In this document: one piece after another, positions 6,951-55,734 of the stretch | How positions within the stretch are numbered: the stretch's first letter is position 1 | Layout of the letters: every line of letters starts with the position of its first letter | NCBI GenBank assembly: GCA_002989075.1 | Contig: PSQN01000016.1 | Span: 558,001-622,000 of the forward strand | DNA from: Arthonia radiata | Taxonomy: Eukaryota; Ascomycota; Arthoniomycetes; Arthoniales; Arthoniaceae | Length of the DNA stretch: 64,000 nucleotides | Reading direction: 5' to 3' | Program-made: the position numbers and the translations under genes | Notes under the pieces: generated by a model | What the model was told of the DNA's origin: nothing | Databases searched by the model: none | Seen by the model: only the letters and a program-made list of their open reading frames with translations

Positions 6951-7275
6951 GTGGCAGGGGTTGTTATAGGATCTTTAGGTATTAGAAGGCCTAGGCCTTC
7001 TAGTAGGGTTTATAGATAGTAATAGTTTTACCTTTATTAATATAGTATATATACTAAAATTATAGTATTAGTAGTATAATATATCTAAATTTTAGCATAT
7101 TATATTAAAATTGATATAAAACTTTAATAAAGTTTATAAAAGGACTTTATTAGCGTTAATAAAGTAATATAATAACTTTAAGTACTAATATTAAGTTATT
7201 ACTATAATATAGTTTTTTATTATTTTTATTTATACTATAATTTAGCTTTAAAACTACTATAACCTTTTAAAATAA
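6951..7275 (+). repeat. Left terminal inverted repeat of the composite element
   Basis: Aligns by eye to the reverse complement of about 37590-37882. Shared landmarks in order are CAGGGG, AGGATC, a palindromic AAGGCCTAGGCCTT core, CCTTTATTAATATAGTA, AAACTTTAATAAAGT, GAGTTATTACTATAATATA (left copy AAGTTATT...) and TTTAGCTTTAAAACTACTATAA. Similarity fades after about 7275. The left copy has roughly 30 bp that the right lacks. A perfect 20-bp palindrome lies at 6983-7002. Confidence 0.7.
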
Positions 7276-7576
7276 CTAGAACTATTTATATTACTATTTA
7301 TATAACTATTTATAAAATTACCTATATAGCTATTATTTATATAACTATTTATATATTATTTAGTTTCTACTATTAAGTCTATATAGTTAAAACATAATAA
7401 TAATAATATATAATATTAAAGTATAGAAAATAAAGTAGATTAGTAACTATATTAATAATAAATTTAAAAGAAATTATATATAGCTAAAATTAAGATTATT
7501 AGTAATAAATACTATATACTAAGCTAGATTTATAAAGGTTTTTAGTTTTATAGTAATATTTCTTATATAGCTATAG

Positions 7577-8048
7577 TATAACGCTAGTCGCTGGAAGAAC
7601 CAAACTAAGGCTTACTTGCCTTATATACTTATCGACCTTGGTAGTGGGTATCTTGTGTACTAGAGACTAAAAGATAGGAGAGGCGAGATAGATTATAGAA
7701 GGTAAGAGGAGCTTAACTAGAGTAGATAGAAGATAAAGTACGTTACCTAAATATAGTTAAGAAACTTGTATTTAAATATTAAGTTAATAGACTAAAGTCT
7801 ATTTTAAGGTTAGTTATTAGTTTAGCTATATAGTCTAAGGTATATAGAAGAAGTTTCTTTATGTTCGCTAACTCAATAATACTTATATTAGGTTTATAGG
7901 GAATATAGGCCTTTATAGCCGTCTTGTTCGATAATACCTATAGCGGGTTTATAGGCTTAGTCGGGAATAATGCTGGTAGGGCTAAAATAACTAGCGGTGG
8001 TTAATACTTAAATGTGCGCTAGGCCGTCTGAGGCTAGTGTCTGTAATA
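7577..8048 (-). repeat. Gypsy A 3' LTR (472 bp)
   Basis: Same length as, and about colinear with, 21667-22138. Begins TATAACGC, derived from TGTAACGCC as seen in the less mutated relative at 36775, and ends TAATA (from TAACA). Confidence 0.88.
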
Positions 8049-8152
8049 CAATTCCCCCTCTTCTAGTTAAATTGTTCTTAATTAACTCTTAGCCTTTTAA
8101 ATACCTATAAGTTGCGTTTCGTCCCTTCTTTTGTAACTAATCTGTAAGTCGC

Positions 8153-8800
8153 TATGCCTCGCATAAAGTCTGTTGCTGCGGGTCCTAACAAAAAGTACAG
8201 CTAATACCTATTGATTGAAGCTTACGGTATCGAAATGCCTCTTTGTTTCAGATGTGTGTCGACTAAGGAAAGGTATGTAGTTTAGTTTAGAAAGGCGACG
8301 TGTTCGGTGTGTACTCGGGACGAGAAGAGTTATAATTTATGGGTATCGATAGCAGATAGTATGCCTTATTGTTGTCTTTCTATAATGCTTAAAACTAACT
8401 TAGTTGCAGTACGTTCGGTTTATTCTTAATATTTCTTTCAGTCGGCTGCCCTTTAGCGTGCAAAACGTTAATTACGCGCGTTAAAGTCCTAGGCAGTAGC
8501 GTTAATTGCGGCTATACAGCGTAACCGATCTAAGATCCAAAAGTTAAAAGAGAAGGTTAAGAAGACTTGTACGTAGATAGCAGCAAAGTTAGCTTAAAAT
8601 AAGTTGTTAAAGTAAGAAGAGTTTACTACGTTAATAACTAGTAGCGATATATTTAAATATCTGAGCGGGTTATCTATTAACTTTTAGAGTAACCTCTATT
8701 CGAAGTTAGGTAGTAGTCTTATAACGTAGTAGGCTGGTTTGTTTGTAGATAACCTAGGTACCGACAAGACACACTAGATAGTAGATTAGAGTATTAGTGC
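8153..8800 (+). other. Antisense Cys-rich plus coiled-coil gene relic inside Gypsy A
   Basis: Downstream of the integrase end, but on the opposite strand to pol, there is a coding-like stretch. It starts at about 8153, and a second Met at 8235 opens a block MPLC-x2-C followed by RYVV and a C-x2-C pair (zinc-finger-like spacing). Intron-like sequence follows (branch-like CTAAC, then pyrimidine-rich CAG) near 8395-8445. After it comes a Lys/Ala/Gln-rich stretch to about 8,650 that looks like a coiled coil. A gene of the same order and strand sits at the matching place in Gypsy B (14002-14650). It is now non-functional. Function unknown; I recognise no named family. Confidence 0.45.
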
Positions 8801-11800
8801 TACTATAACTGACTAATATTTTAATTCTAATATCGTTAAATAGTGTCTTTATAGTTAGTTAGGTTTTATTTTGGTTTCTATTAATTTTTATGTTTAAGAT
8901 ATTCTTTCTATTTTATAAGATACTGTCGTTTGCCTCAATGTTGTTTGTAAGCTTAAATCATTTTAACCTTATACTCGGGTTCTTAGTTGTTAGAAAGGAT
9001 TTCTAGGTTGAGTCGTTCTACCTCTCGGAAGTAGGCTAGTTTTAATAGCGCTATATAGAATATAGAATGTATTCTTATTGTCTTCGGGAGTTTAATTTTA
9101 AATGTTACGGGTTCTAATTGCTGTAAGATTTTAAACGGTCTTGTCTTAGTATAGTTAAGTTTCTTGCTTAGTTTAATAGTTTTTATGTTTCTTATAAGCA
9201 AGTAAGCTCTTCTCTTCTCTTTTATATCTATATTTAGGGTAGTTTTTAACTTATTATACTATTTCCTTGTTCGTTCGTTAATAAACTCGCTGTTAGCCTT
9301 TAACTGCTGGTACAGGGTTCTTATATTTGTTGCTATTCGCGTAGCAGTGTCGTTTTCTGTAGTGTTCTATAGTTATCTACCTTAAAGAGGGTAATAGCCG
9401 TATAAGGTATAGAACGGTGTTGTCTTAGTTATATTGTTCTTTGTATCGTTGTACGCCGCTTACGCTACTAGTAGTAATTATACCTAGTCGTTTTACTAGT
9501 AGTTAATATATACCCAGAGATACTATTCTAGTGTTTAATTTGTTTGTTCTATCTGTCCGTCTGTTTATAAATAGAATAACGTAGACATTTTTTGTTTTGT
9601 TTCTAGTTGTTGTATTAGAGATGTTTAAAATTATAAGACAAATTTTTAGTCTCTATCTAAGACAATTCTTTGTGGTTAACTATAATTAGCTAAGATAATC
9701 TAAAGCAAGGTGTATACTAACTATTCTAAGTTGCTGGCTTCCTTGTAAGATACGAAGTACGCGTATTTTGTTAGTTTGTTGTATATAACTAGAATAGCGT
9801 TGTAAGCTACTCCTGTAAGTAGATCCTTAGAAGTTAGTAACTTAGTAATAAAGTCTAGTAAGACTGTATACTATAGTCTCTTAGGTATCTCTAGTAGTTG
9901 TAGTTTACTGTATAGTAAATGTCTTGGGTGCTTGGTTCTTGCGCATACATCGTATTTCTAAATATAATTCTCGACATAGTGTTAGATTCTCGGAATGTAG
10001 TAGGTTCTCGTAATCTTTTCTATAGTATTGTCGATACCTTTATGTTCTTTTATCGAATTATTATAGAAGTTATTAATAATGTGTCGGATTAGATTCCTTA
10101 GAACATAGATTTTGCCTTACAATTTGTAATAGCCTTTGTTGTTCTTAGTTAATCCTAGGTGTTGTTTCTCGTTTTCCTAATAGGTCTTAGAGTCGTTTAG
10201 GATATTTAGGATTCGGCTGTCTGGTTCGATAATAAACTCAGTTGTTATAGTTAATTAATTGTATCTGATCTTATTATTGTTTTCTTAGAATATTGCGTGT
10301 TTAACGTATTTCTTATTATTAAGGTAATCTAGACGTCAGCTTAGAGCGTCGGCTCTGTCGTTCTTAGAACCCTTCTTGTAGGTAATAATAAAGTTGTATA
10401 AAGCTATAGTTTCTAACTATCTAACTTATCTGCGGTTAAGTTTCTTTGTTGTTATAAAGTAAGTTAGGTTCTTGTAATTTATATATACTATAATTGTATA
10501 GTTCGCTCCTTCTAGATAAGCTTACTATATCTTAAATGCTGCTATAATAGCTAAGAGCTCTTTATTGTAAATATTATAGTTCTGTTCTGTAGATAATATC
10601 TTCCTTAAGTAGAAAGCTACTAGTCTAAGCTTTCTTTCCTTATTGTTTTAACTTATATATACTCTAATCGCATAGTCTAACGCGTCTATTTCTATAATAA
10701 TTGGTAGGTTAGGGTCAAATATTGCTAGTATAGGCTCGATCTTAAAAGCTTTCTTAAGCTCTTTAAATACTAATTGTTTCTTTTACGTCCAGAAGAATCC
10801 TGTCAATTGTTTTGTTTGTTGAGACAGCGGTGCTATAATTCGGCTAAAGTTAGATATCTATCGCCTGTAGTAGTTAGCAAAACTAAGAAACTGTTGCAAT
10901 TGTTTTATATTCTTTAGTATAGGCTAGATTAGAATAGATTAAATCTTTAAATCTTCTATTTAGAGACTGTGCTCGGTAATTATAAATCTAAGAAATTTAA
11001 CAGATTGTTGATAAAACTAGATTTTCTCGATATCGATTTGTAAATCGGTACGCGTCAATCTTTCTAATACCTTTTTAATATATTTCTTATATTCTTCTAG
11101 TATACGGCTATATACTAGAATATCGTTTAAATAAGTAGTTATAAATATGTCTAGATAATCGCTAAGTGTGTTGTTAATTAGTTTCTAAAATAATGCTAGT
11201 GCGTTTGTTAGCTTAAAAGGTATAACGCAATACTTAAAAAGTCTGTATCTAGTGTGGAAGACTGTCTTTTATTCTTCGCCTTCTCTTATATAGATTAAGT
11301 TGTAGGCTCTTCGTAGGTTAAACTTAGTAAACTATTGCACGTTATACAATCGGTCTGTAATTTTGTCGATGCGTGGTAGCGGGTATCGATTTTTAATAGT
11401 TACTCTGTTCAATTGCCTATAATTTACGTAGAGTCGTAGTTTGCTATTCTTCTTTAGTACAAAGAGTATCGGGTATCCGGCTAATAATGTCGACCTTTAG
11501 ATAAATTCTTTCTTAAGATTTTTATTGAGATAGTCGCGAAGCGCTTAATTTTCTGCTTCTAATAGAGAGTATATTAGACCGAACGTTAGCGTTTTACCTT
11601 CTTGTAAAGGTATTATATAATCTTACGGTTTGTGCTCTAGGAGAGCTAAGTTTGGCTCAGCTTCCTCGAACAGATATTAAAATTGATTGTATTCCTTAGG
11701 TATCTTAGTAATCAACTGAATACTTATCGTTGTATAGAATCGTTAGCGTATAGTTGTCTCTTGTTTATACTTATATATAGTTAGCTATAGATAAGATACT

Positions 11801-13280
11801 ACGTTAGACTTCTCTCGTAAGATATCTAAATATCGGAGTGTAGTAGTACTAACCCGCGTAAGTTCTTTATCGCGCTTCTTATCCTTACTACTAAAAATAG
11901 CTTATAAAGTATTTATCTCGTAGAACGACTCTTATCTAAAGTACTTGTATTTAGTAAAGAGGAGCTTTTTAGTTCTCTAATCTACTTCTAAGTTATATTG
12001 TTACAACTAGAGTATATCTAGTACGGCGTAGTACTAGTTAATATCTACGATATTATAAGTAATTTCTTTTTAATAGTCCCCGATAGTTATATCTATTGGC
12101 GAAGTTTTGTAGTCGACTCTTCTCTCTGTCCCTTAAAATCTAGACAGTACGTAAAGTAATTTCTTTTTTTGTGTTTATATCTAACACTCCTCGATACAGC
12201 GTATTAAGATAAAGTTGCCTGTTGCGTCTAAATCGATTATAATTTTAATGTTTCTGTAGTTTATTGTTGCCCGAGTGTATAGATATATTCTATAGGAAGC
12301 CGAGCTCGTATAGAGCTAGACTCTTAGAGAGTTTAACCGTTAAATAAGCCGGTACTACTGCTCTTGAAGCAGTCGGTCTAGTCTTTTTCCTGTTAATTAT
12401 ATACGTTCTAGAGTATTTTAGGTACTAAAACTTATTGTCGGTTGATTTGCTATAAGAATTCCTGTGCAAGGTGTCTTAGTACTGCTTTTATTATAACGTC
12501 TGGTTTATTGTTTACGATCTCTGCTTTAATTATATAACTATTGCTAGTTAAAACTTGTTGTGTCTATAGGTTGTATATTGTTAGTTAAAAATATTGGTAC
12601 TAACTATATAATTCTAGACCCCTAATAAGGTGGTCTACTAGTCGTCGTAGGCGTAAGTAAATATATTCTAGAATATTATTAATGTCTCTATTAGTGCTTA
12701 ACTTCCTCTTGTAAAAGGCCAACTAACAAAGTCTCTATATTATTCCTTTCTAACGGATTGGGGTTTGCTCTTTCTAATTAGTGTCGTTCTTAAGAGAGAA
12801 TTCTGTACCATTAGAATCTATATTTTTATCTTTAAGTCGTTGTCTTGTCTATAATGCATCGTAGCTGCTATCTTGCTTAGCTTCTACGGTCTGTTCTTTC
12901 TTAAATTCTCCTTAGGTTTCTAGATAAGGTAATCTAGGTCGTTCTTGAGTAAGGCCTAGTTCTTATATTAAACCTTGTTTTAGAAATATTAGTTTCTTTG
13001 GCTACTATTCTAACTCTACTTTGTTAGAATTATAGGTCGTACAATTGTTATTGTAGCACGCAGTCTAGAATAGTGTTTTGTATAGTGTAATGGTACTCTA
13101 TACCCGATGCCTTGGAATAGTACGGTCAATGTTGTTTTAGTCCTATAGGTTTTATTGTTTCTGTTTTATTTGTCGTTCCTTTGTTTTCTTCTATAACTCG
13201 TTATCTGTATTCTAGTTTGCATACAACTTAAATAGATTTAGCTCGTTGTGCTTCTCGTTGGAAGTAACCTAGTAAGTGTC

Positions 13281-13924
13281 TATAACGCCGGGCGGCCGTA
13301 ACCGCTTTGCTTGGTCTTATTCTATACCAAGGGTAATCTAACTAAGACAAGGAAGACTGAGGCCGGGTCTATCGTCTAGGTATTTAACTCGGGAGGAGAG
13401 GTTAAGGAAGCAAGGAACAAACTATAAGTCTTTAAACGAAGGACTCAGCCGGTAATGTAAATAAGCCAAAAGATGCACTAAGACCGCACAGAAAAGCTCT
13501 CTCGAGATACAGTCGCTCTATTTGTACGTCGTCGTAGCTATAGAGTTCTGCCTCGCGCTAATACTTATAAGAGTCGCTCGTAGCTTACTAGTTGTGTTAC
13601 AGCAAGATAAACTAATTAGGTTTAATACCTTAGAGTTAATATTAAACAATAATACTAATTCTAAATCTAAATTTACGGATATTTATCTACTAAGGTAGAT
13701 ATTTATCCTTACTATATAGTCTGTAGTAACTACTGTTACTGCTACGTTAACTGTGTCGGGGACCGCTGGCGACGCTACGTTGTACGCGGTTAGTAACGCT
13801 AATAACGCTGCGTTTCTTACAGTTATATTATATAATCTTTGCTTTATTATATAATTCTGTATAACGTACATAAAAGAACGTGTTTCTGTTTAATTATTAG
13901 TTAGTCTGTACGTACGTCTTAATA
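13281..13924 (-). repeat. Gypsy B 3' LTR (644 bp)
   Basis: Identical in length to 20043-20686. The two copies differ mainly by C/T and G/A changes, so a clock age from LTR divergence would be inflated by RIP. Confidence 0.88.
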
Positions 13925-14001
13925 TTAGCCCCTCTCTAGGTTAAGTTGCCCTCGATTAACTATAAGTACGGTATCTCGCTGCTATTTTAATCTCTAAGTT
14001 T

Positions 14002-14650
14002 TTGACTATGTCTAGTTGTCTACTTCTAATACGTACCGAGCTTCGCGACAGACGTACCAACCGAATCGAATCTTGCGCCGCTTCCAACATGCCTCTATGT
14101 TCTAGCTGTTCCTGCGTTGATACAAGGTACCTTGTAGCTCCTTCTCTGTCTCGCTTCTATACGCGCTATACTCGAGGTTCTTATTCAGAAAAATGCGACG
14201 CCCTTCTTAACAAGAGCGAGTATTCGTAACACGACTCGGGTCCCTTGCCTCTCTTTCTAACACTTTTGCAGTTAACAACCTTTCTAAGCGAATTAACTTG
14301 CTAAAGAGGAAGAAGAAGTTGTTAAAGAGAAAGTTAGTAGAAATATTTACAGAGACTATTAAAGCTAAGAGTCGGTAGAGTAAGATATTTGCTCGTAAGA
14401 AGGAGATATTGTTTCGGTAGAACTTGGCTAAGAGTATATCTATTGGCGTTCCTAAGCGTTTTGCTGCAGAAGACGTTGCTTTCGATTTGTTGAATCTAGG
14501 TAGTGCCGGTTTTGTTACTAGTAGTTAGAATAATGCCTTGCGTTCTGTTAATCTTAATTCTCTTAAGACTTTCGAAGAGGTTCGTAGTTTTAGCGTTGTT
14601 CCTAATACTGGCTCTAATAGTGTTTCAGCAGTTGCTAGCAATAAGACAAG
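14002..14650 (+). other. Antisense Cys-rich plus coiled-coil gene relic inside Gypsy B
   Basis: Same position and strand as the antisense stretch in Gypsy A: just inside the 3' LTR, beyond the integrase end, opposite to pol. A Met at 14089 opens MPLC-x2-C-x-C followed by RYLV, then a Cys/Lys/Tyr-rich tail. An intron-shaped block follows (GTAACA near 14225, CTAAC, then TTTTGCAG ending at 14270). The next part is a strongly basic run with alternating Lys/Leu, like a coiled coil or nuclear signal, reaching about 14,430, with a Ser/Asn-rich end to about 14,650. The shared MPLC-x2-C...RY-[VL]-V core with Gypsy A suggests homology. Function unknown. Confidence 0.5.
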
Positions 14651-17600
14651 TTCTTAATTAGTTTCTATATGTTCTCTGTTTCCGAATACCCTTTCTATTT
14701 AATAAGATACTTACGTATCCTACCTCGTTGACGATATATAAGGATTTATTTAACTTTGTATTCTAGTTCTTAGTTCTCGTCTAATAGTTCGATAAGTTCT
14801 AGTTGTAGTGCATCCTTTAGTACTAGTTTTAGGAGTAATTTATAAAAGACGTTGTGTATACGCATTATTTGTGGTAGTTCTAATCTAAAGGTAACTAATC
14901 CGAGTACCTTAGAAATTTTAAATAGTCTGAGTTTTGTATAGTCTAACTTGTTGCAAGGTTGTTTAGTTTTAACGTATTTCTAACGAAGGTAAACTGTATT
15001 CCTCTCCTTAAGGTCTAGTCTTATAGACCGTAACTTGTTAGCTTGTGCTCTTATTCTTTCTAAATTCTACTGTAACTATTAACGGAGGTAGTTATAGACT
15101 ACTTCTCTGTGTTATAAAATTTTAATTGCTCGTTCTAAGTTTGCTGTAGTTACGCCTGCGTTGTGCTATAAGATAGGATTTCGTTTAAAATTGACTCAAA
15201 AAAGTGTATTACCTGTTAATAATCTACTGTTGTTGTACGTAAACTGTACCAATAGTAGTAGTTGTAACTAATTGTCTTGAGTATAATTAATATAGGCTCG
15301 TAGAAACTGTTTTAATGTCTGATTGAGTCTTTCTGTCTGTCTATTAGTTTAAGGATAAAAGCTAGTCGATAGCTTCCGCTTTGTGTCTATAAGCTTAAGT
15401 ATTGATTTCTAGAATCTTAAAGTAAAGAGTTTATCTCTGTTAGAGATTATCTCTGCTAGTGCTTTATGCTAAGCAACAATATATCGATACAAAAGGAATA
15501 CTGTATCGTGTACAGTATAGCTTCGCATTGTTAAGATAAAGTACCTATACTTTGTAAATCGATCTACAATTACATAAATTGTATCGTACCTGGTCTCATT
15601 TCCTAGTTCCTTGGAAGGTAGTAGGTCTGTAATGAAGTCTATAGCGATCGAGCTTCAAGGCTCTGCTAGTATCTTTAAGGGTTGAAGGAGGCCGTATAGT
15701 CGATGTCGTTCGTTCTTAATCCTTTTGTATATATTATACTTATTAATATAGTTATCGATTATCTTTCTAAGTCCTGGAATAAAGTAAGTTCTTGTAATCC
15801 TTTCTATAGTTGTAGCAACTCTTCGGTGTCCTTCCTCGTAAGCTTCGCGAATAATAGTATTTTATATGTTTCTTGGAACATAGATCTTGCCGTTAAATGT
15901 TTTAAGTCTATATTCGTTAGTAAGCTTTATAGTATTGTTATAGACTACTTAGTTCTATTTGTACCCTTGTATTAGTTTGTTTCTTCTTGACTGGTCCTCT
16001 ACTCTTATTACTACTAAGAGTTCCTTGGCCCCGTTGGGTTTAAGTATTCTATCTAGATTGTATCGTAGTATTGTATATAAGACTTGTGTTTTATTTGCTA
16101 TGTAGTTTAATCTTCTACTAAGAGCATCGGCTCTTTAGTTTTCTGATCCTTTCTAATATGTAATACAGATGTTGAACGATTGTAGTTCCTCTAACTATCT
16201 AACCTATCGTCTGTTTAAAACCTTTGTTGTTGTAAATTAGGTTAGGTTCTTATAATCTATAATAATATATACTTAATGTTTTGGTATTGCGTAGTAATGC
16301 TTCTAGTGCTTAAGTAACTCAACTACTGATAGTAGTTCCTTATCGTAGATATCGTAGTTTAGTTCTAATGCTGTTATCGTTCTTAAGTAGAATGCTACCG
16401 GGTATAAAGTTCTATTTTCTAGTTAGCTAAGTACTAATTCGATTGCAAAGTTAGATGCGTCTGTCTCTATAGTGGTTAATTTGTTGTAGTCGAAGGTTGT
16501 TAGAACTAGTACGGTCGTAAACCGCTGCTTAAGATCTTGAAACGCGTCTTCTTAATTCTTTTTCTATACGAAGAGTAAATATTTTCGTATAAGTCTTGTT
16601 ATTGGCAAGACTACTCTAGAGTATCTATTAATAAATCTCCTGTAGAAGTTTCTAAAGCTGAGGAAGGATTAAATTTCCTTCACATTTTTTGGAGTAGGCC
16701 ACTTAAGTATAGCTTTTACCTTATCCGATAACATTTTAATTATGCTAGGTTTAATAACGTATCCTAGAAAGTTAGTTTCCTGTATATAAAACTTACACTT
16801 CTAGAGCTTAATACAGAGATTGTGTTTATCTAGCTGTTCTAATACCTACGCAACGTGTTGCTTGTATTCCTCTAGCGTCCTAGAGTAGACAATAATGTCG
16901 TTTATATATACTGTTATAAATTCGTTAAAGTACTTTTCTAGCACTAAGTTAATATATCGCTGAAAGGTTGCTAGAGCGTTTACTAGTCTGAAAGGTATAA
17001 CGAGGTATTTATAGAGGCCGAAAGGCGTTTTGAATGCTATTTTCTACTCGTCTCCTTCTCGTACTCGGATTAAATTGTAAGCGCCTCGAAGGTTTATTTT
17101 TGTAAACTATTGTACTCCTCGGAGAGAGTCTATCTCGTCGTTAATAAGTAGTAACGAGTACCCGTCTTTCTTCGTTATTGCGTTTGTTGGTCGGTAATCA
17201 ATAACCGATCGGAGCTTGTCTCCTTTCTTAAGAATAAAGAATAGTAAGCATCTAAATAGAGCTTCCAATTTCCTAATAAATCCTTTCTTTTTAAGCTTGT
17301 CGATATATACCTTATATTCGTTTCTGTGATCTAGTCTTATTGGATATAACTTAGTGCCCTTAGAATTTAAGTCGGATAAGAACTCAATCTTATAATTCTA
17401 TGGTACGTATTTAGGTAACTCGTTGTCGGCTTCTTCTCTGAAAACTTGTTTATACTGCTAGTATTTCTTAGGTAATACCGGTTAAGGAGTATTGAGGCTT
17501 GTTAGTTCGGCTACTTCTCTTACCTAGGCACGCTCCCTACGTCTTTTAGTATAATAGGTTGGTATAGCTATTGCCAACTCGTTGATAGAATCTGTTCTAA

Positions 17601-22138: not shown

Positions 22139-22143
22139 TATAG

Positions 22144-23004: not shown

Positions 23005-23009
23005 ATTAT

Positions 23010-26180: not shown

Positions 26181-26229
26181 CTCCTCTCTGTTCTGTTTTA
26201 TATAATCTATAAATAATAGTGTTGCTAAC

Positions 26230-29130
26230 TTTAGTTTAATTACGCTGTCTATACTATAGTTGCACAAAATTAGTAGACACAGTTAGATAAATACTAAGTC
26301 TATATACTTCTTTAGTAGCTGTTACAACATTTTAGACATCTTAGGCAGCATTCGCGCCCACTAAAATATCTCTTGTACCTTAGCCCGCCTACCCTAATTT
26401 CTGTATAAGAGGCCTAGATTATTAACTATATTAAGTGTCGACGTATAATCTTGTCTAAGTACCTTCTCCTTTCCTACTAGCGCCCGTAGATATATCTCCT
26501 CTATCTCCGCTAGCTTGCCCTAATCGCTATATAAAACAGTAAGGTTATTAACTATATTAAGTATCGACATATAATCTAGTTCGAGTGCCTTCTCCTTACT
26601 AGCTAGCACCCGCTAGTATATCTCCTCTGCCTCCGCTAGTTTGCCTTAAGTTCTATACAGCTCTTCTATAGAACTAAAATCTGTAGACTTACTATTATAC
26701 TCTTAATATTCTTCTAAAACCTTTCTTATACGAAAGTAGCAATATCGTAAGGCGTAACGAAGGAGTTGCCGGTTGTCGAACTATAATAGTAGCACGTCCT
26801 GCTAAACAAAGGAGTCGGCTATACAATAGAAGGCGCGCTAGGCAAGGTCTTAGTTAATAAAACTGTTTAGGTAATTTAGAGTCTAGTTATATACGTAAGT
26901 ATATAAACTGTATCCTTCTATACTCTTATAGCTATTAATAAGTAAATAATCTTGTAGCCTCTTTATAATCTAACTAAATTTTAATTTGCTGCGTAGAGCC
27001 TTCTATAAGTTAGAACGACAATTATTAATACTAATTGCTTTCTATAAGATCTCGAATCGGATATCTTCGCTATTAAAATATGCTACTAGACGTAGAATCT
27101 ATACAGCTTTAGATAACTGCCTCTTAATTATTAACAAGGACAGGTTCTAAGTACTATAAAGCGTTCGTCCCTTATAATTTAGAAGCTCGTCGGCGATCTC
27201 TCTAAGCTCCTATTACAACTCTTAGTAATTCTTTAGGTATTTAGAAAAAGTATTAGAGATGTGTTTTAACTAGTTGCCTACGGTCGCTAGCGCAAGAGGT
27301 AGTCTGTTAAGTTACGCCGCTAGAACGCGGGCATTAGGATCTAGTTATATAATTAGCTAAGTCTTAACTATAATCTTAACTTACTATACCTTCTATAGCT
27401 TTCGGCCGGTTTAATCTCCTTGCTAGAATCTCTAGTCCTTGCTATTCGCCAAGCTTCCTTAATATAAGAACTTTGCTAAATTCTACCTACAAACTTTACG
27501 TTGTAATAAGTATCGATCTCTGTACTCTATACGGAAAGAAGTGCTTAATGTTGTAGACTGTTAGCTCGTTATAGTTATTAAAGATTAGTATTTATTGAGT
27601 ATTTTTAGATCGCGACAGCTATTCTTTAAGGTGCGTAATAGCTGTGTCCTTATCCTCTACTCCTGTACTATATCCTAGAGAGCTCGGTATTAGGGACAGC
27701 TGAGACGCTATTCGGTGTTAACTTTATTATAGAAGCATTTTACTCTTTATATTTAGCCAAAAGATGGCCGAAAAGCTATCCTTTAGCTTCTTAGTAAGCG
27801 CGACAGCAAGCTGGGTCTTGCCTATCCCTCCTAATTTCAATACAATTGCAATTCTTCGGCTAGAATTATCGTTATCGAGAACAAGTACCTTCTAGAGAAA
27901 ATTAAGTTCGTCCTTACGTCCTATAAAGCTATACTCCTCGATCTCGGGGGCGTTTACAAAATTTAGGCCGAAATTGTATACTACGTCTATACAAGTTATT
28001 AGCTGTTAAATAGCATTCAATAGCAAGCAAATTGCAAGATTTAAATACGTCGTTTAAGAGAATCTAGAGTAGTACTATAATTATATATTAAACTAATAGC
28101 ATATAAGCTGCTTACTAACCTTTAGACATTGTTTCTATGTTTCTGACTGTTCTTAGTTAAATCTTATAGAGTAATTCCCTTCTAAACGCTGCTACTCTTC
28201 CGGCTACCTAATTCTTCTAAAAATTGTCTTTATGCGAGTTAGTATAGTCTAAGATCTTATAAATAATAAGGTAGCTTCTAAATATATCGACGCCTACTAC
28301 TTCTATCTTAATATAAAGCACTCTATTATACTATCGGCTAATCTTATTCCTTCGCTCGCCGTTCTAAATAACTAAATTGCTACTAGCAACCCGCCCTTAA
28401 TAGAAGATAAATCTGCTTCTCTCGTCTTTAGACCGTAGAGCTCGCTAAACAAGCTTGTACTAATTATATATAGCGCAACTAGATCTATACTCTCCGATAT
28501 GCTTATATAAAGTACTAAATAAGTTGTCGTATTCTTGTCTAAGACGAGCAAACTTTAGGTAGTCCTGTAACTACGTAAGTTAAGTATAAAAACCGGCCCG
28601 ACCTAACTTATAATTATTCTTAAGAACTCTAAGCGTATTTATAAGCCTCTAGTCTAGTTTGTCTATAATCTCTAATATCTTATATTCCCTGTTAGGCTTA
28701 AATTTCTTTGAGTTATAATAGACACAGGCTAGCTTCCTGTTACTAGGCTAGCTAACAGCGATATCGCCGAGATAGATATTTATAAGAGCGTTACTTAAGC
28801 TTATTAGATAGAGCATACCGCCTCCTATTCTAATAAGTAAGGCTATTCTAACGTTAGAGAACGTCTTAAATAGTAAGCCTGTTAGACGTCTAGTATTAAC
28901 GTTGCCTATCGATCTTAGTAGGCAGGTAGTAACAACTACTATATAACTAGTAATTGTACCGTAGATATATATATTGTCGTTATAATATATATTATACTTT
29001 AAGTAGACGTACTCTTTATCGAGCATTAAACAAAACGGTAGTAGCTCGACGTTCGGTAGTAGATATATTTATACGACATAGTAGTCTTTATAACTTAGTT
29101 GTATTCTTTCTTAAGCTATTACAATAATAG
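26230..29130 (-). pseudogene. NOD-like receptor relic: PNP_UDP, NB-ARC, TPR
   Basis: On the minus strand, read through RIP damage. Near 29,100-29,030 there is D-Y-Y-V-V-W-I, as at the start of fungal PNP_UDP domains. At 28,750-28,880 comes I-G-G-G-M...L-G-D-I-A-V-S, matching the nucleoside-phosphorylase core GIGGGVP...LGDVVIS. Near 27,813-27,840 comes the P-loop G-G-I-G-K-T-Q of NB-ARC. At about 26,400-26,700 there are at least three TPR units of the kinesin-light-chain type (T-L-N-I-V-N-N-L-G-L-L-Y) at exactly 126-bp (42-residue) spacing, e.g. 26419 and 26545. This is a classic fungal NLR architecture, used in non-self recognition; such genes are frequent Starship cargo. About 2.9 kb, the expected length. 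It sits tail-to-tail with the DUF3435 gene, roughly 50 bp apart. Inactivated by many stops. Exact ends are uncertain. Confidence 0.78.
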
Positions 29131-30040
29131 ACAGAAAAGAGAGATAAGAGATATTAGTAGTTACTAGAATAACAATTTACGCGGTAGTCTAAGAAATTAA
29201 GCTTACTTTTTAAGAAGGCCGTCTTAAGCAAAGAAACAGAAAAACGGTACTAGCGACTTTTTTAGGTATATAGCAGCTCAAGGGTTTCTTATCTTACTAC
29301 ACGTATAGACAGAAAGGCTGGCGCGTACGTTCGGCCTCTTAATAGAGACAGTAAATTAGGGCTCTGCTCTTGTACCCAATTAGTAGGCTAAGATAGACGC
29401 AAACCGTTTATTTAGCTTCTACTTTATCGGAATAGATAGCGTTAATAGCAGGCTAGGCTGTTTAACTACTCGAGACGAGACATAACATAGAAAGGTAGGC
29501 CCGAAGATATAAGTATTACCAGTATATTTACCCTTTTCGGGTATTTAGTATCTCTTACCGTAAAGTATATATAGGTCTACTATACAAGGCAGAAGATAAT
29601 TAGATGCGTACTAATACTCCCTAAAATAGCTATATTAGTGTAGACAGCAAGTATCTCAATAAGAGCTACGCTCCGCTCTATATTTAGATACCGTATAGAC
29701 TAGTGCTTATATATACTGTAGCGTTAGGCGTACAGGAGACAGAAACGCAGTAACTAATAAACCTCCTCTAAAGCTTGTCTTAGTAGATATTTACTATTGC
29801 TGTTAGTTCTACGCCAAGACAAATACTTTAGTGCCTAGCAATATAATTTAATTGCTTGCTAAATATTAGAATAAGGTAGCTAGCTAGCATTTAACTTATT
29901 ATTCTAGAACTCTTAAGTCCTGACTACGGTCTATAATTGTTTAGTATATTTCTTGTTAGTGACAGACAAACAAGATTAGCTCTATTACGTGTCTAGAAAT
30001 AACTCGTATCGTAGAGCAGGGTTAGCATTAACCTTAGAAT
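29131..30040. other. Unassigned RIP-mutated stretch upstream of the NLR relic
   Basis: Moderately AT-rich, with no recognisable protein motif on either strand. It probably contains the former NLR promoter and the 3' flank of the Tc1/mariner relic. Confidence 0.3.
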
Positions 30041-30049
30041 TTAGGTAAC

Positions 30050-31460
30050 TGTTAGGACATTTCTTTATAAGCGCAATAGAACTACTTAAACTTATCTTAA
30101 TTTAACTAGAATAAAGCTACTAAGAACTACTAAAGGCGTACAGACAGCGTAGCAATTACTATAGCGATACAAAGCCTTATAGCTAGTAGCACGTTTAGTA
30201 TCTTTACGGCAACCTACTTAACCTACTTATTAAACTAAGACCGCGGCAAGGTCCTCTACCAATCGTTCTTTAGATAGCGCTTAAGCTTTTTTTATATCTT
30301 TATATAATATTTATAAGCTTGTTACTTAATACATCCCTAGCAATTCTCAATAATATTAAGGTTAGGTAACTGTAGCGTAGTTACTATACTCTAAATACTG
30401 TATTACTGCTTTATACGCGTAACAGGTATCTTTATACCTCCTTATATGTCTCTTTGTAGTACTAGTAGAGGTTACTTTTATAGTTCCAGCCTACAGCTAT
30501 CTATATATAAAGGATATAGTTATTACAAGACTTATACCCCTTCTCTATATAATCGTCGCGGTATTACTTACCCGGCGCGCAAATAAGTTACTTAGTTAGT
30601 TAACAATAAAAAAGAGAGTACTCTATTAGGAAAGCGTACAGACTTATAAAATGCCAGAGGTTTGTCTTTTAAGTCTCTATAGTTAAGCTTTGTTAAAAAG
30701 GTGCAGGGAAGAAGAAGAATACTACTATAAAGAGTAGGAAGACGAGACTAGCTTAAGACTAGTACAATACTTAGGCTTAATATAGGTACAATACTTAGTA
30801 GCAAGGAGAAGCTGTTATTATGTTGTCTGTCTTGTTAGCTAAAATTCTTCAAAGAGATTCTAGCTTATATATCTAAGTTTAGCAGCTTATATAGAACTTA
30901 CTAAATATCTGTTCTTTTAATAGAGGCCAGATAACCCGTAACTTACCGTATAAGACAGTAATTCTGTCTATTTAAAACTGTTAGTTTTTAAGTCTATTCT
31001 GTGTTGTTTTAGACTATAGGCCAGCTGTCTAGGATAGGTCGTATAATACTTCTTTTTGTCCTAGACCCGGGCTACTAGGCCCGACCCTTTAGATAAAAGG
31101 CTTGTTCTATTTTAGGCCGAGACAGCTGGTAGAACCTGTTCAATACTCTAGGCCCCTAGAGGTTCTAGCTAACCAGCTAGTTGGTTAATTTCCAACAAGC
31201 TTCCTTTTATTAATGTTTTGTGGCTATAGCGATCGCTTTTTAATATACTTAATATATATAGTATCCTATCTTTTTTATGTAATTGTATAGCGTCTACTAT
31301 TTGTATAGTAGCTTCTATTCAATTTAAAGTTGTTTCTAGCTAAGACGCTGTAGTCCGAGTAGCTAATTATCTAGCGCGCGGTTAACTACCCCTGCAGCCT
31401 TGTTTTCTTCTTAGTGCTTCTAGTTTTTCTTAAGCCGGCCCCCTCTCTAATTTTATAAAT
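30050..31460 (-). mobile_element. Tc1/mariner-type DDE transposase relic, split by a solo LTR
   Basis: On the minus strand at about 30,640-30,050 a DDE_3-like transposase is readable through stops. C-A-P-G-K-x-Y-R-D-D-Y-I appears near the middle, a G-G-K-I-like turn follows, then L-P-N-L-N-I-I-E-N-C (the family's SPDLNPIENCW box before the last catalytic acid), then K-K-L-K-R-Y-L and a terminal A-I-R-L. The solo copia LTR at 30691-31197 interrupts its N-terminal half, and basic helix-turn-helix-like sequence continues to about 31,460 (Q-L-T-A-R-Q-I-I). No terminal inverted repeats or TA duplications could be assigned. It lies inside the inverted-repeat element, either as an insertion into it or as old cargo. 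Confidence 0.65.
30691..31197 (-). mobile_element. Solo copia LTR 2 (507 bp)
   Basis: Same family and orientation as 22497-23004. Perfect duplication AGCTT at 30686-30690 and 31198-31202. It interrupts the Tc1/mariner relic. Confidence 0.9.
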
Positions 31461-31467
31461 AATTACT

Positions 31468-31974
31468 TGTTGGAAATTCACTAACTAGCTGGTTAGCCGG
31501 AACCCTTAGGGGTCTAGAGTATTGGATAGGTTCTACCAGCTGTCTTAATCTAAAATAGAACAAGCCTTTTACCTAAAGGGTCGGGTCTAGTAGCCCGAGT
31601 CTAGAACAAAAAGGAGCATTGTACGACCCATTCTAGACAGCTGGCCTGTAGTTTAAGACAATATAGAATAGACTTAGAGACTAATAGTTTTAGATAGACA
31701 GAATTACTGTTTTATATAGTAAATTACAGGTTATCTAGCTTCTATTAAAAGAACAGATATCTAGTAAGTTCTATACAGACCGCTAAACTTAGATATATAA
31801 GCTAAAATTCCTTTAGAATATTCTAGCTAATAAGACAGACAATATAACAATAGCTTCTTCTTGCTACTAAGCATTGTACCTATACTAAGTCTAAGTATTG
31901 CACCAGTCTTAAGCTAGTCTCGTCTTTCTACTCTTTATAGTAGTATTCTTCTTCTTCTCTGTACCTTTTTAATA
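31468..31974 (+). repeat. Copia 5' LTR (507 bp)
   Basis: Starts TGTTGGAAATT and ends TTTTTAATA (from AACA). Matches the two solo LTRs in reverse orientation and the split 3' LTR. Confidence 0.9.
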
Positions 31975-34900
31975 GGTTATAAGCCCGAGTTAGCACCAAT
32001 TCCTTTTAAATTTCCTTTTTAGAAAATATTTCCCCTACAACATTTATCGGCACCTCCAAACGATTCTATTACCAATCGACTCTAAATTTTTAGCCCAATT
32101 TAACTATTAGAACAGAATTTCCTTTTTTTTTCGGAAATCTTCGACTATATATTCGGCTATAAACTCCTCTTATAAGATTTCTAAACTCAGGGGCTCGACT
32201 AATTGAGACATTTGGTCGATTCGAATAGAGGCCCTTTTAACTAAAAAGGGCTACAGTAATGTTATGATCCCCTTTTCCGGCTATTTAGCTAGAGATATTA
32301 CCGAAGCTAGTCGTTAGAAACAGTCAACAAGGGTAGCAGCCCTTATTCGACTAACTCTAAAGGACGGTCTTCTTATTTAAACAAAGGGGATTTATAACTC
32401 TTTAGAGCTTTAAGATAGCCTAAAAAGGTTATACGAATCGAAAGGTTTTAGTTTTAAGTTTCTAATTTGCAAGGAGCTCTTTAGCACTACACTTAGTAAG
32501 ATAAAAAATCTTAAGCTTTACCTTACTAAAATTAGGCAATTAACGGACGATTTAGTAATCCAAGGACTAGCATTATTCAACAAGGTAGTAGCTACCTACA
32601 TCCTCTACAATCTGACCCTCGAATACAAGCATACGGTGGCTATTATTAGCCAAAGCTACCGGCAAACGACTAGCGATATAAGTTTACAGGACTTATTTAG
32701 TTAACTTATAGACGAGTCTCGCCGAATCCGCGGTAGTATCCCAGCAGAAAAGGTTTTTACTGCAATAGACAATAAATCGACGCAAAGGACCAGAGAAAAA
32801 TTAAAACCTCTAAGTAAAAACTAAGAAAAATGCCTCTTTTGCAACAAAAAGGGGCATAAACCGGCAACTTGTTGGAAAAAATATCCAAATCTCCGGCTAA
32901 ATTCTAACAAAAGCTCTAAAAACACCGATTCTTTAATATTTTCTGTACATAGTTCCAACCTACAAGAAGAACAATGCTTTCTAGCATTACTAAACAGAGT
33001 TAATTATTCTACTAATTCTTAGATCCTCGATATAGGCTCAATAAGCTATATTTACTCGAATATTAACCTTCTAACAGATATCCGGCCAACTAACCAGATT
33101 ATTCGTTGGGGAGGGGGAAAGTTAATCTGAGCCTTTTAGACAGGCAAAGTAAAACTGTTTTTTAAGAACAAAACAATTATTCTAAACAAAGTTTTATTTG
33201 TTAAGGAATTCGAAATTAACCTTCTAAGCTTCAAAAAGCTTAGAAAGAGGGGAGGTAAGGTAACTCTTAACTAAAACAAGCCAAAAGTTAATTAGACCGG
33301 ACAACTAATCACCGAGGGGCGGTATGTTGACGGCTTAATAGTAATAAAAGCTCAGACTATTAATACAGTCCGATCTCTTTATACTATTTCTTCGAAAACT
33401 AACCTTTAGTATCAATAGATAGGACATATAGGTAAAAACACCTTAAAACAGCTTAAAAAGGTTACTCTAGAAACAAATTATTCGGACAAATTAGAAGATA
33501 ATTGCTAAATTTGCTTTGAAGCAAAGATAACGGCTAAAGTTAGCTAAGAAACTCTAAACAAATTGGCCAATTATTTAGAAAAAGTCTACTCAGATATTTG
33601 CGGGCCAATTATACCGCAAACCCCTTCTAAAGGTCGATTATTTACTAGCTTTATAGACAATAAAACTCGGTATACAACTACCGAGGTACTATAGTCTAAA
33701 GATTAGGTTTTTAACGCACTATCTATCTATATTATTTAAGAAGAAACGTAGTTTGAGTATCCTTTTAAAAGACTATACTTAGACAACGCAAAAGAATACC
33801 GGGAAGGCCAGGTAAAACAGCTTCTAGAACAAAAAGAAGCTATTTTAACGATATCCGTACTATATACTCTTTAGCAAAACGGACGAGCCGAACGCTTTAA
33901 CCGAACAATCGTTAGTAAAGTTTAAGCAATACTTTATACCGCCGGGCTACTCTAAGTATATTGGGGTAAAGCGCTAAAAGCAGCTATTTATATTTACAAC
34001 AGGACCCCTTATATCGAATTACCGGGGTTTATTACCCTGTACAAAGTAAAATACGGCAAAAAACCGGATGTTAGTACTATTAAAATCTGGGGCTCAGTTA
34101 CTTATCTTAAAGAACCTAAACTAAAAAAACTAGACGCCAGAGTAACTGCTTATATCTTAATAGGCTACAGATCGAACTAATATAAGCTCTTAGACCCCAA
34201 TAGCCGGAAGGTTTACTAAAGGAGAGACGTTTACGTTTAAGAAGGAAAATTTGTTTAGAACCTACGGAGATCTACGATTAATCGATTAACCAAGAGTATT
34301 CCTAAAGAGTCCGAAGAACAACTAAAAGTTGAGTTCAAAAACGAGCTAAATCCGACCGCTAAATCTTAAGATAATAGGGAGGTACCTCCTAATAAAGAAG
34401 AAAGTCCTCTATATAAGAAACAGTATACCCCCCCTATATCTTAACAACTAGCGGACGAATTTAGATAAGAACTATACTAAACTAGAGCTCTAAACGAGTC
34501 TAACCTTTCTATCGAGTTAGATTACAGAAGTACTAAAGACCCCGGCCGGGTAGATATTGATTGCGCCTAGGAAATAGATTTTATATACGAAAACGTCGAC
34601 AAAAATTGGTTTGAGGAGTTCTACAATAACCTAGAACAATACGCCGAGCAGACCTTAATCGCAGTAATTAAAGAGCCTAATAACTTAAAAGAAATAAGTA
34701 TATTTAAGGATTGACCTTCTTAGCTAGACGCAATGTAGTCGGAGCTCAAAGAGCTAGCTAATTAAGAAACCTAGATATTAACCAAGCTGCCGCCGGGTAG
34801 AAATGCGCTAAAAGGGCGCTGGGTACCGAAGATTAAGTACCCTCTAAAGAGCGAGCCGATTTTTAAAGCCTACTGAGTAGCTAAGAGCTGCCAGCAAAGA

Positions 34901-36373
34901 CCTAGTTTCAATTCTATAGAGACCTTTATAAATATAGTAAATTTAATTACCTACCGGCTTATATTAGCCTTAGCAGCAGAGAAAGACTAGGAAATAAAGC
35001 AATAGGACGTAAAATTAGCTTATTCTAACGTAAAGTTAAATAAGATTGTCTATGTCGAGTAACCAACTAGCCTATCTAACGGAACTAATAAAGTTTATTA
35101 AATAGAGAAGGCCCTTTACGGTCTAAAACAGGCCAGCCAACAGTAGAAAGCCTATCTTCGAGAATTACTAAGGGGAATAGGTTTTAAATCTCTAGTATCC
35201 AATTAGTCGATTTATATCCAAAGAACTAAAAAGCAGGCAATTTTAATTGTCTATATAGACAATATATTAGCTGTATCCGATTCTACCGAAACAATCTCCG
35301 GAATCTACCAAGAACTAAATAAGACTCTTATAGTTAAGAACTTAAGAGACGTTAGTAAGTTCCTAGAAATTAAAATTACCTAAGATCGCCCGGCAAAAAC
35401 GATTCGCCTAGACTAGTCGACTTATTTAACTAAAATTTTAACCAAATACTCGAAGAAAAACGGTCGAATGCCCAGAAAAATACTGTAACCCGTCGGCTTA
35501 AAATTGACACTAAATTCTAACTAAGCTAGCAGTGCCGATATTTCTAATTATTAGCAACAAATTGGATCGATTTTGTATCTAACAACAAAGACAAGACCCG
35601 ATATTGCCTTTACAACTAGCCTACTAGCTCGGTACATATTAAATTCTAGCGAGAAGCACTAAAGAGTTTTAAGTAGCCTTTAGGCTTACTTAGATAAAAC
35701 TTCTAACCTTGGCCTTTACTACAAATCTTCCTTAATAGACGGTATAACTGGCTATTATAACGCAGATTGGGGGGGGAACATTGGTACCAGGAGATTAACT
35801 ACTGGCTATATCTTTCTACTTAGGAACGGAGCCCTTAGCTAAAATTCGAAGCTACAAAAAACGGTCGCCTTAAGCTCTTGTGAGGCCGAATATATGGCCC
35901 TTAAAGAAGCTATAAAGAAACAGTTATTTATCTGATTAATTGCTACCAAACTGTCCAGAATTTTTGAAGAAAATTTGATTACTACCGTTTTAGCGGGTAC
36001 TCTTAAAAAGTCTGCGGATAAAAAGACTTAGCGGGCTCTAACGTACCAGGCAAGCATATATTTGCCCGGGCAAGCCGGTTAAATTAGACCGGAGACCCCG
36101 GTTTTGTCGGTAAAACTGTTACTTACCGACAGCAATTTGGCAAAAGAACTTATAAAAAACTCTACCTTCCGAGCTAAATCTAAGCATATTGATATACAGT
36201 ATTACTATATTAGAGAAAACGTTCAGGCAGGCCAAATAGAGCTTAAATACGTTTCTATAAAGAAACAATTAGCAGACGGTTTAATAAAACCGATCGACTT
36301 AGCTAAAATACTAACGTTTAGAACTTTAATTAGCTTATAATCCGGCTAAAATAACTAGTCGATTAAGGAGGTA

Positions 36374-37351
36374 TTTTAGAAATTAACCAACTAGCTGGTT
36401 AGCTAGAACTCTTAGGGGCCTAGAGTATCGAACAGGTCCTACCAGCTGTCTCGGTCTAAAATAGAACAAGCCTTTTACCTAAAGGGTCGGGCCTAGTAGC
36501 CCGGACCTAAAACAAAAAGAAGCATTATACGACTCGTTCTAGACAGCTGGCCCGTAGTCTAAGACAATACAGAATAGACTTAAAGACTAATAGTTTTAGA
36601 TAGATAGAATTATTATCTTATACAGTAAGTTACGGGTTATCTAGCCTCTATTAAAAGAATAGATATTTAGTAAGTCCTATATAGGCCGCTAGACTTAGAT
36701 ATATAAGCTAGAATCTCTCTAGAGAATTTTAGCTAACAAGACAGACAATATAACAATAGCTTCTCCTTGCTACTTGTAACGCCGGTCGCTGGGAGAACCA
36801 AACTAAGGCTCACTTGCCTTGTATGCTTGTCGACCTTAGTAGTAGGTGTCTCGTGTACTAGAGACTAAAAGACAGGAGAGGCGAAACAAATTACAGAGGG
36901 TAAGAGGGGCTTAACTAAAGTAGACAGAAGGTAAAGTACGTTACTTAAATATAGTTAAAGAACTTATATTTAAATATTAAGTTAATAGACTAAAGTCTAT
37001 CCTAAGGTCGGTTATTAGTCTAGCTATATAGTCTAAGGTACATTGATATGTCCTACTAGAGGACGTAGTAGACGTATAGCTCTGTACCCGTCCTAGACGT
37101 CTTTAACGTCCTATAAACGTAGTAGACGTGTAAACTAAATACGTCTTCGACGTCTTCCTCTAATTAGTGTATCCGGGTTTAGGGCTTAGTCTGGCCTCGT
37201 GTGTTTTCTATTTAGGTTTAGACAAGGCGGACTTGTAACACTACTAAGTATTGTACCTGTACTAAGTCTAAGTATTGCACTAGTCTTAAGCTGGTCTCGT
37301 CTTCCTACTCTTTGTAGTAGTATCCTTCTTCTTCCCTGCACCTTTTTAACA
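36374..37351 (+). repeat. Copia 3' LTR, split by a solo Gypsy-type LTR
   Basis: Copia LTR sequence runs to 36774, is interrupted by 36775-37240 plus one CTACT duplication, and resumes at 37246 to end TTTTTAACA at 37351. Without the insert it is 507 bp, equal to the 5' LTR. Confidence 0.9.
36775..37240 (+). mobile_element. Solo LTR related to Gypsy A (466 bp), inside the copia 3' LTR
   Basis: Begins TGTAACGCCGGTCGC and ends TTGTAACA, with the duplication CTACT at 36770-36774 and 37241-37245. The first ~260 bp matches the Gypsy A LTR (7577-8048). The second half is different and is full of ACGT and GACGTC words, so it is a variant subfamily. It shows that the Gypsy A family, or a sister, was still moving after the copia insertion. 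The strand given is relative to the shared 5' part as written; Gypsy A LTRs read in the same direction on +. Confidence 0.85.
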
Positions 37352-37589
37352 ACCTAAATTAATATTATAAATATATATATTACTAATAAAACTATATAAG
37401 TAGTAAAAGTAAGATAATAAGTAACTTTAATATAGTAAAAGAGCTTTAAAAGTATTAAAAAGGCAAAAGAAATAGAAGAGTAATAATAATAACTTATAAT
37501 CTTATAAATATTAATAGTAATAGAAGTATTTTATATTATTAAAGCTTTATTATAATTTTCTTAAATTAACTAACATAGTATTATTAATA

Positions 37590-37882
37590 ATTTTAAAAAG
37601 TTATAGTAGTTTTAAAGCTAAAGTACAGTATAAAAAAATAAGAAAAAGTTATATTATAGTAATAACTCAATATTAGTACTTTAAGCTACTATAATACTTA
37701 ATTAATATTAATAAAGTCTTTTTATAGACTTTATTAAAGTTTTATACTAATTTTAATATAATATCTTAAAATTTAAGTATATTGTACTATATTAATAAAG
37801 GTAGGACTATTACTACCTATAGACCCTACTAGGAGGCCCAGGCCTCCTAGTACCCGAGGATCCTGCAACACCCCTGCGCCAC
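37590..37882 (-). repeat. Right terminal inverted repeat of the composite element
   Basis: Inverted partner of the left repeat; see the landmarks listed for 6951-7275. It ends in CCCCTGCGCCAC at 37871-37882, where AT-rich sequence stops. It contains a near-perfect 22-bp palindrome at 37829-37850 (CTAGGAGGCC, CA, GGCCTCCTAG reading outward) that corresponds to the left-arm palindrome. Compared with the left arm it has kept more G and C, so it is less mutated. Confidence 0.7.
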
Positions 37883-52197: not shown

Positions 52198-52202
52198 GTC
52201 CG

Positions 52203-55730: not shown

Positions 55731-55734
55731 AGTA

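What the first reader, a model, noticed from the sequence alone, without database searches (positions are those of the whole stretch)
6951..37882. A tyrosine-recombinase element bounded by long inverted repeats, with an NLR gene as apparent cargo
Seen: ~0.3-kb inverted repeats exactly at both composition edges, and between them (after subtracting nested LTR elements) about 9.4-9.5 kb with a DUF3435 gene starting 1.7 kb from one end and a convergent NLR gene. Known: DUF3435 recombinases mobilise Starships, which carry NLR cargo, but Starships and Cryptons are not known for long terminal inverted repeats. Inference: this may be a compact, inverted-repeat YR element with a two-gene body of recombinase plus immune receptor, or a Starship fragment captured by another inverted-repeat element.
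Basis: partly seen in the sequence, partly recalled or inferred. Interest (0 to 1): 0.85.

Follow-up and report, generated by a model that had tools for sequence, protein, structure and literature searches.

The report
Starship remnant inside older inverted-repeat transposon
The stretch looks like several mutated fungal jumping genes nested in one another: a small, probably cut-down Starship-type element carrying an immune-receptor gene sits inside an older inverted-repeat element, rather than being one new kind of inverted-repeat Starship.

Summary
The one-element reading is not supported. Of six LTR insertions, four have 5-of-5 target duplications and one 4-of-5, which makes the left repeat contiguous with the DUF3435 gene. 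The copia element before the right repeat has unrelated flanks (0 of 5), so the right repeat is not shown to be the partner. No direct repeat of 5-12 bp flanks the outer ends. The repeat-bearing arms are 13-14% GC, the DUF3435-NLR block about 35%, with sharp breaks at 23229 and 31448. ATTACT lies just outside both breaks and matches ATTAC/TTTACT repeats reported for Phoenix-family Starships; a 12-mer starting with it recurs only in the right arm. These repeats are suggestive, not decisive. Best reading: a compact or truncated Starship-like element (about 7.7 kb) inserted into an older AT-rich TIR element, later hit by LTR elements. No other copy could be examined, because no host genome was held.

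The parts
6955..7281 (+). Left arm of the long inverted repeat, starting CAGGGG; outer 54 bp 46% GC with an internal palindrome, the rest about 13.5% GC
37578..37876 (-). Right arm of the long inverted repeat, ending CCCCTG; outer 76 bp 55% GC; at 10 of 10 differing sites in the outer 60 bp it has C or G where the left copy has T or A
6955..7576 (.). AT-rich left arm of the TIR element; continues at 22144-22496 and 23010-23228 after removal of two LTR insertions with 5-of-5 target duplications
7577..22138 (-). Gypsy-type LTR retrotransposon inserted in the left arm (TSD TATAG/TATAG)
   Evidence: RT, RNase H and integrase matches on the - strand, (one frame per strand searched); TSD
13281..20686 (-). 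Second gypsy-type element nested in the first (TSD GTGTC/GTGTT, 4 of 5)
22497..23004 (-). Solo LTR of the copia family in the left arm (TSD ATTAT/ATTAT)
23217..23228 (+). ATTACTAATAAA: candidate 5' direct repeat, ending at the composition break; only other copy in the 64 kb at 37379-37390; its first six bases ATTACT also at 31462-31467 (ATTACT is found 15 times in 23001-37500)
23229..31447 (.). Block of about 35% GC with the DUF3435 gene and the NLR gene: proposed compact or truncated Starship-like element (7,739 bp from ATTACT to ATTACT without the solo LTR)
24363..25584 (+). DUF3435 (captain-type tyrosine recombinase) match, profile positions 2-367 of 418, with a +1 frame change between 25046 and 25105 (intron or indel, not resolved); 14 in-frame stops in 24363-25040
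26354..29120 (-). NLR-type gene relic: TPR region about 26354-26741, NB-ARC about 27493-27912; the upstream part (about 28500-29120) looks to the eye like a PNP_UDP_1 domain (recalled), which no Pfam call supported
   Evidence: no PNP match
30130..30690 (-). Suspected relic of a DDE transposase C-terminus, seen by eye; DDE_3 match only E 0.023 at 30283-30366, within the range of chance matches in these calls
   Evidence: none with stops as X; frames
30691..31197 (-). Solo LTR of the copia family in the block (TSD AGCTT/AGCTT)
31468..37351 (+). Copia-type LTR retrotransposon with non-matching flanks TTACT/ACCTA (0 of 5): right junction of the outer element not supported
   Evidence: RVT_2, SH3, gag and Pol_BBD matches; flanks
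36775..37240 (-). Solo LTR of the first gypsy family in the 3' LTR of the copia element (TSD CTACT/CTACT)
37352..37876 (.). AT-rich right arm of the TIR element (14% GC except the tip); holds ATTACTAATAAA at 37379-37390

Best explanation
Nested remnants. An older AT-rich transposon with roughly 0.3-kb terminal inverted repeats (what is left of it is about 1.7 kb without the inserts) was entered by a compact or truncated Starship-like element of about 7.7 kb. That element had a DUF3435 tyrosine recombinase (captain) near its 5' edge, reading inward, and an NLR-type accessory gene reading towards it. The captain would have moved it by site-specific recombination at an ATTAC-type target inside the TIR element. 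Two gypsy elements, one copia element and three solo LTRs then entered, the island was mutated by RIP, and recombination involving copia copies probably replaced or deleted DNA next to the right arm. Shown: the inverted repeats, the LTR target duplications, the composition breaks, the DUF3435 match and the NB-ARC/TPR remains (weak scores). Inferred: the insertion at ATTACT, the function of the captain, the order of events, and the copia recombination.
For: Change points of GC at 23229 (log-likelihood gain 99) and 31448 (gain 30) in the LTR-subtracted sequence. Arms 13.2-14.1% GC; four block stretches without a recognised domain 38.5, 36.4, 35.4 and 27.5%; LTRs 35-37%. CpA 0.3 and 0.9% in the arms against 2.2% in the block. 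The TIR pair has 7 transversions in 237 inner columns; four LTR pairs have 0 of 462, 1 of 644, 1 of 508 and 2 of 503, which suggests that the TIR pair is older than the LTR insertions. ATTACT lies in the 12 bp next to the left break (63 of 1545 arm windows hold it) and in the 20 bp next to the right break (119 of 1513). A 13-mer ending exactly at the left break recurs in the right arm (0.2-0.5% of 3000 simulations for each of three models; 1.7-2.6% within 10 bp). Direct repeats of Phoenix-family Starships are given as TTTAC, TTTACT and ATTAC (PMC12257634). DUF3435 is the first domain found inside the left break, all six frames searched from 22.0 kb. NLRs are listed as Starship accessory genes (PMC12506042). 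No direct repeat of 5-12 bp at the outer TIR ends.
Against: The direct repeats are short, lie in very AT-rich DNA and the windows were chosen after looking. ATTACT occurs 15 times in 23001-37500, and a 14-mer and two other 13-mers are shared by the two arms elsewhere. Two candidate 3' edges (31462 and 37379) compete. Known Starships are larger (17 kb and up in Verticillium; type elements from 16.4 kb in A. fumigatus). No terminal inverted repeat was found at the block edges (words of 8-9 bp only). The right break could be the edge of another feature. The transversion count rests on one alignment of AT-rich DNA. No second copy or empty site was available.
Confidence: 0.62

Rival explanations
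1. One compact element: the long inverted repeats are the ends of a tyrosine-recombinase element whose body is the DUF3435 gene and the NLR gene. The AT-rich arms would be its non-coding ends.
For: The left repeat is contiguous with the DUF3435 gene once two LTR insertions with 5-of-5 TSDs are removed. DUF3435 is the first domain found inward of the left arm from 22.0 kb. Starships can have TIRs.
Against: Sharp composition break at 23229, although the DNA just inside it, upstream of the DUF3435 match, is 38.5% GC. No direct repeat of 5-12 bp at the ends. The copia flanks do not match, so the right repeat is not shown to be the partner. The TIR pair has more transversions than the LTR pairs.
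Confidence: 0.13
2. A DDE-type TIR transposon that owns the long inverted repeats and a transposase relic at about 30.1-31.4 kb, and that has picked up the DUF3435 and NLR genes as passengers, as ToxTA/ToxhAT carries passenger genes.
For: A stretch on the - strand next to the right arm reads to the eye like a Tc1-type DDE C-terminus, with a DDE_3 match of E 0.023. ToxTA has 74-bp TIRs and cargo (PMC12506042).
Against: The DDE match is within noise: an unrelated family reached E 0.0068, and (stops as X) found no DDE match. No 8-bp or TA target duplication at the outer ends (flanks). The left composition break is unexplained.
Confidence: 0.09
3. The two inverted repeats come from two different copies of a TIR family, brought together by ectopic recombination between copia insertions; the TIR-to-TIR unit never moved as one element.
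For: Copia flanks TTACT/ACCTA match at 0 of 5; no direct repeat of 5-12 bp at the outer ends.
Against: Needs two copies with copia insertions in suitable orientation; similarity of the right arm to DNA upstream of the left 12-mer is not above chance (P 0.34 of 2000). Compatible with the best explanation as an added step.
Confidence: 0.1

Closest known systems
Starship elements, Phoenix-type target (for example Limos with DR ATTAC, Thetis with TTTACT, Horizon with TTTAC; PMC12257634 passages)
   Same: DUF3435 captain near the 5' edge reading inward; ATTAC-type repeat at the edges (suggestive); NLR accessory gene
   Different: About 7.7 kb instead of roughly 16 kb and more; RIP-degraded; 3' edge obscured by a copia element; captain family not determined
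ToxTA/ToxhAT nested in Starships Sanctuary and Horizon (PMC12506042, PMC11857905 passages)
   Same: Nesting of a TIR element and a Starship; RIP; passenger genes
   Different: There the TIR element lies inside the Starship; here the proposed Starship lies inside the TIR element. ToxTA TIRs are 74 bp with a TA target duplication
Icarus of Pyrenophora tritici-repentis (PMC9594970 passages)
   Same: A unit with TIRs at its edges read as a putative Starship
   Different: 294 kb, captain absent, DDE genes present there
Crypton (features recalled)
   Same: Tyrosine recombinase DNA transposon
   Different: The match here is to DUF3435; no GCR1_C match in the Pfam scans of the block

Membership tests
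Starship | DUF3435 tyrosine recombinase (captain) | tested here: met
   PF11917 E 1.1e-25 and 1.5e-18 in two adjoining frames
[quoted passage not shown]
   No other domain between 22.0 kb and 24363 in six frames at E 0.01; + strand. Taken from the break at 23229; gene start not resolved
Starship | Flanked by short direct repeats | tested here: inconclusive
   ATTACT at 23217 and 31462, or a 12-mer at 23217 and 37379; none of 5-12 bp at the outer TIR ends
Starship | Asymmetric terminal inverted repeats (frequent feature) | tested here: inconclusive
   Block edges share inverted words of 8-9 bp only; the 3' edge is uncertain
Starship | Accessory genes such as NLRs | tested here: met
   TPR matches and a below-cut-off NB-ARC match on the - strand
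Starship | Large size (about 16-700 kb) | tested here: not met
   7,739 bp without the solo LTR; loss at the 3' side is possible. It is therefore called Starship-like and not filed as a Starship
Starship | Presence/absence between strains at a defined empty site | not testable with these tools
   No genome held for the window
   Left side contiguous by TSDs; right side interrupted by a copia element whose flanks match at 0 of 5
   No exact repeat of 5-12 bp and none of 8-12 bp with one mismatch near the ends; at the exact ends (GTGG outside left, CGCC outside right) none of 1-4 bp either, read by eye
hAT or Tc1/mariner transposon (outer TIR element) | 8-bp or TA target duplication (recalled for hAT) | tested here: not met
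   flanks read
hAT or Tc1/mariner transposon (outer TIR element) | DDE transposase in the element | tested here: inconclusive
   DDE_3 E 0.023 at 30283-30366, none; within noise, ownership unclear
Crypton | Crypton-type YR with GCR1_C (recalled) | tested here: inconclusive
   No such match, but a small domain could be missed in RIP-mutated DNA

The most novel reading that the evidence does not exclude
A compact tyrosine-recombinase element that really ends in long (about 0.3 kb), palindrome-tipped inverted repeats and carries an immune-receptor gene as its only recognised partner, a small architecture unlike the Starships in the passages I read. The evidence here lowers it but does not exclude it, since no other copy could be examined.
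Probability: 0.12. Interest if true: 0.7.

Novelty: new member of a known kind. Interest (0 to 1): 0.32.

Why it matters
If the nested reading holds, it gives a small Starship-like unit of a captain plus an NLR with a proposed insertion site inside a TIR element, and a reminder that inverted repeats around a DUF3435 gene need not be its ends. If the one-element reading held, it would show a compact TIR form of the captain-mobilised elements. One search in the host genome could settle it.

Tried and rejected
Rejected: that the two direct LTR copies at 22497 and 30691 bound a retro-element carrying DUF3435 and NLR; each has its own 5-of-5 TSD, so both are solo LTRs. Rejected: the similarity between 22402-22497 and 37353-37438 seen by blastn next to the LTR; 18% of 1000 shuffles of the non-LTR part score as high. 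Rejected: homology of the right arm to DNA upstream of the left 12-mer (P 0.34 of 2000). Not supported: terminal inverted repeats at the block edges; further domains in the block (searches gave only sub-cut-off matches to unrelated families besides those named, the best HAAS_TM E 0.0068, which shows the noise level in RIP-mutated frames).

Led nowhere: viral contigs with the DUF3435 piece (64 pattern matches, none confirmed) and with TIR patterns (0); genome contigs with a TIR pattern (0); solved structures with the DUF3435 piece (0) and three frames of the suspected DDE relic (0, 0, and one thermosome match at E 1.9). These are viral and prokaryote collections or solved structures, so the lack of matches says little about a fungal element. 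The PNP-type part of the NLR, the Tc1-like look of the DDE stretch and the catalytic residues of the captain were read by eye from recalled motifs; no call supports them firmly. Papers with a long-TIR DUF3435 element were looked for only; one search was seen as a listing.

Full report
What was checked. The window holds a 31-kb AT-rich, RIP-marked island between DNA of about 50% GC. Its two edges carry an inverted repeat of about 0.3 kb: 292 aligned columns, identity 86.6%; local score 339, against a maximum of 73 in 300 Markov shuffles. The left copy starts CAGGGG at 6955, the right copy ends CCCCTG at 37876. All 10 differences in the outer 60 bp are transitions, with T or A on the left; the inner part shows 22 transitions, 7 transversions and 31 gap columns in 237 aligned columns.

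What lies between. Two gypsy elements (7577-22138 and, inside it, 13281-20686), one copia element (31468-37351), two solo LTRs of the copia family (22497-23004, 30691-31197) and one solo LTR of the first gypsy family (36775-37240) were delimited; domains, ends. Of these six insertions four have 5-bp target duplications that match at 5 of 5 bases and one at 4 of 5. The copia element matches at 0 of 5 (TTACT/ACCTA). So the left inverted repeat is physically continuous with the DUF3435 gene, but the right one is not shown to be.

The genes. DUF3435 (PF11917) matches at 24363-25046 and 25105-25584 on the + strand (E 1.1e-25 and 1.5e-18). On the - strand there are TPR matches at about 26.4-26.7 kb (TPR_12 E 9.2e-6, below the cut-off; TPR_10 at its cut-off) and an NB-ARC match at about 27.5-27.9 kb (E 0.052, 8.6e-4 with stops read as Q/W; both below the gathering score). 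A stretch at about 30.1-30.7 kb on the - strand looks to the eye like a DDE transposase C-terminus; DDE_3 scores only E 0.023 there and nothing with stops as X. Chance matches to unrelated families reached E 0.0068 in the same kind of scan, so this is a suspicion. The DUF3435 stretch has 14 in-frame stops in 24363-25040, and the other frames are broken by stops as well, as expected after RIP.

Why one element is unlikely. In the subtracted sequence, maximum-likelihood segmentation finds four GC change points: 7009, 23229, 31448 and 37800. The arms that carry the inverted repeats have 13.2-14.1% GC apart from their tips; the block has about 35%, and its stretch just inside the left break, upstream of the DUF3435 match, has 38.5%, so the break at 23229 does not look like the mere start of coding DNA. 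CpA and TpG are nearly absent from the arms and not from the block. The TIR pair also carries more transversions than four LTR pairs, which suggests greater age. The outer ends have no direct repeat of 5-12 bp.

Where the block may end. The 12-mer ATTACTAATAAA ends at base 23228, directly at the change point, and occurs in the 64 kb only once more, at 37379 in the right arm. With Markov models of the arms, a shared word of 13 or more ending exactly there arises in 0.2-0.5% of 3000 simulations per model, and within 10 bp in 1.7-2.6%; for 12 or more within 10 bp the figure is 4.5-6%. Its first six bases, ATTACT, also stand at 31462-31467, just outside the right break; random arm windows of 12 and 20 bp hold ATTACT in 63 of 1545 and 119 of 1513 cases. 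The 12-mer was found, and set beside a recalled Starship target TTAC(N7)A (note), before I read that Phoenix-family Starships are flanked by TTTAC, TTTACT or ATTAC (PMC12257634) and that two Phoenix elements in A. fumigatus have a predicted target A(N3)TTACTA(N2)A(N15)CT (PMC12153272). The pair of ATTACT at both breaks was counted afterwards. Of that target, I compared by eye only the core TTACTA(N2)A, which both copies of the 12-mer fit; the distal CT does not fit at the right copy. Against this: it is a post hoc find in AT-rich DNA, ATTACT occurs 15 times in 23001-37500, other words of 13-14 bp are shared by the arms, and the two candidate right edges disagree.

Conclusion. The best reading is a compact or truncated Starship-like element of about 7.7 kb in an older TIR element whose remains total about 1.7 kb, followed by LTR insertions, RIP and probably a recombination at copia copies. 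It meets the captain, position and accessory-gene features of Starships, is inconclusive on direct repeats and terminal inverted repeats, and does not meet the size feature, so it is called Starship-like. That the host is a filamentous ascomycete is inferred from RIP and DUF3435; no call names it. What would settle it is a search of the host genome, which was not held.

Literature seen: passages of PMC12153272, PMC9594970, PMC12506042, PMC11623449, PMC12289983, PMC12257634 and PMC11857905; other papers only as search listings.

Noticed in passing
52000-57400: A second RIP-marked island; one of six frames of 52000-56902 matches the Tf2-1-like SH3 domain (E 1.1e-9), so at least part is a gypsy-type relic. 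No 200-bp window outside 6955-37876, in steps of 50, falls below 18% GC.
   Followed up: partly
722-880 and 52202-52360: A 159-bp direct similarity (82%) between normal-GC DNA and the second RIP island.
   Followed up: no
6980-7010 and 37820-37855: A palindrome (AGGAGGCC TG GGCCTCCT on the right in repeat orientation, with T/A changes on the left) lies in the tip of each inverted repeat; the right tip is 55% GC although the adjoining arm has 14%.
   Followed up: partly
7009-7576, 37352-37800: In the arms C survives mostly in CpT; CpA, CpG and CpC are each below 1% of dinucleotides: either extreme RIP or a natively AT-rich element.
   Followed up: no
30130-30690: Suspected relic of a DDE transposase C-terminus (DDE_3, E 0.023, within noise), interrupted upstream by a solo LTR; its owner is unknown.
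   Followed up: partly
41362-42714 and 59495-61602: Long open frames in the normal flanks that look to the eye like a PARP-type protein and a DEAH helicase (names recalled, no family search was run).
   Followed up: no
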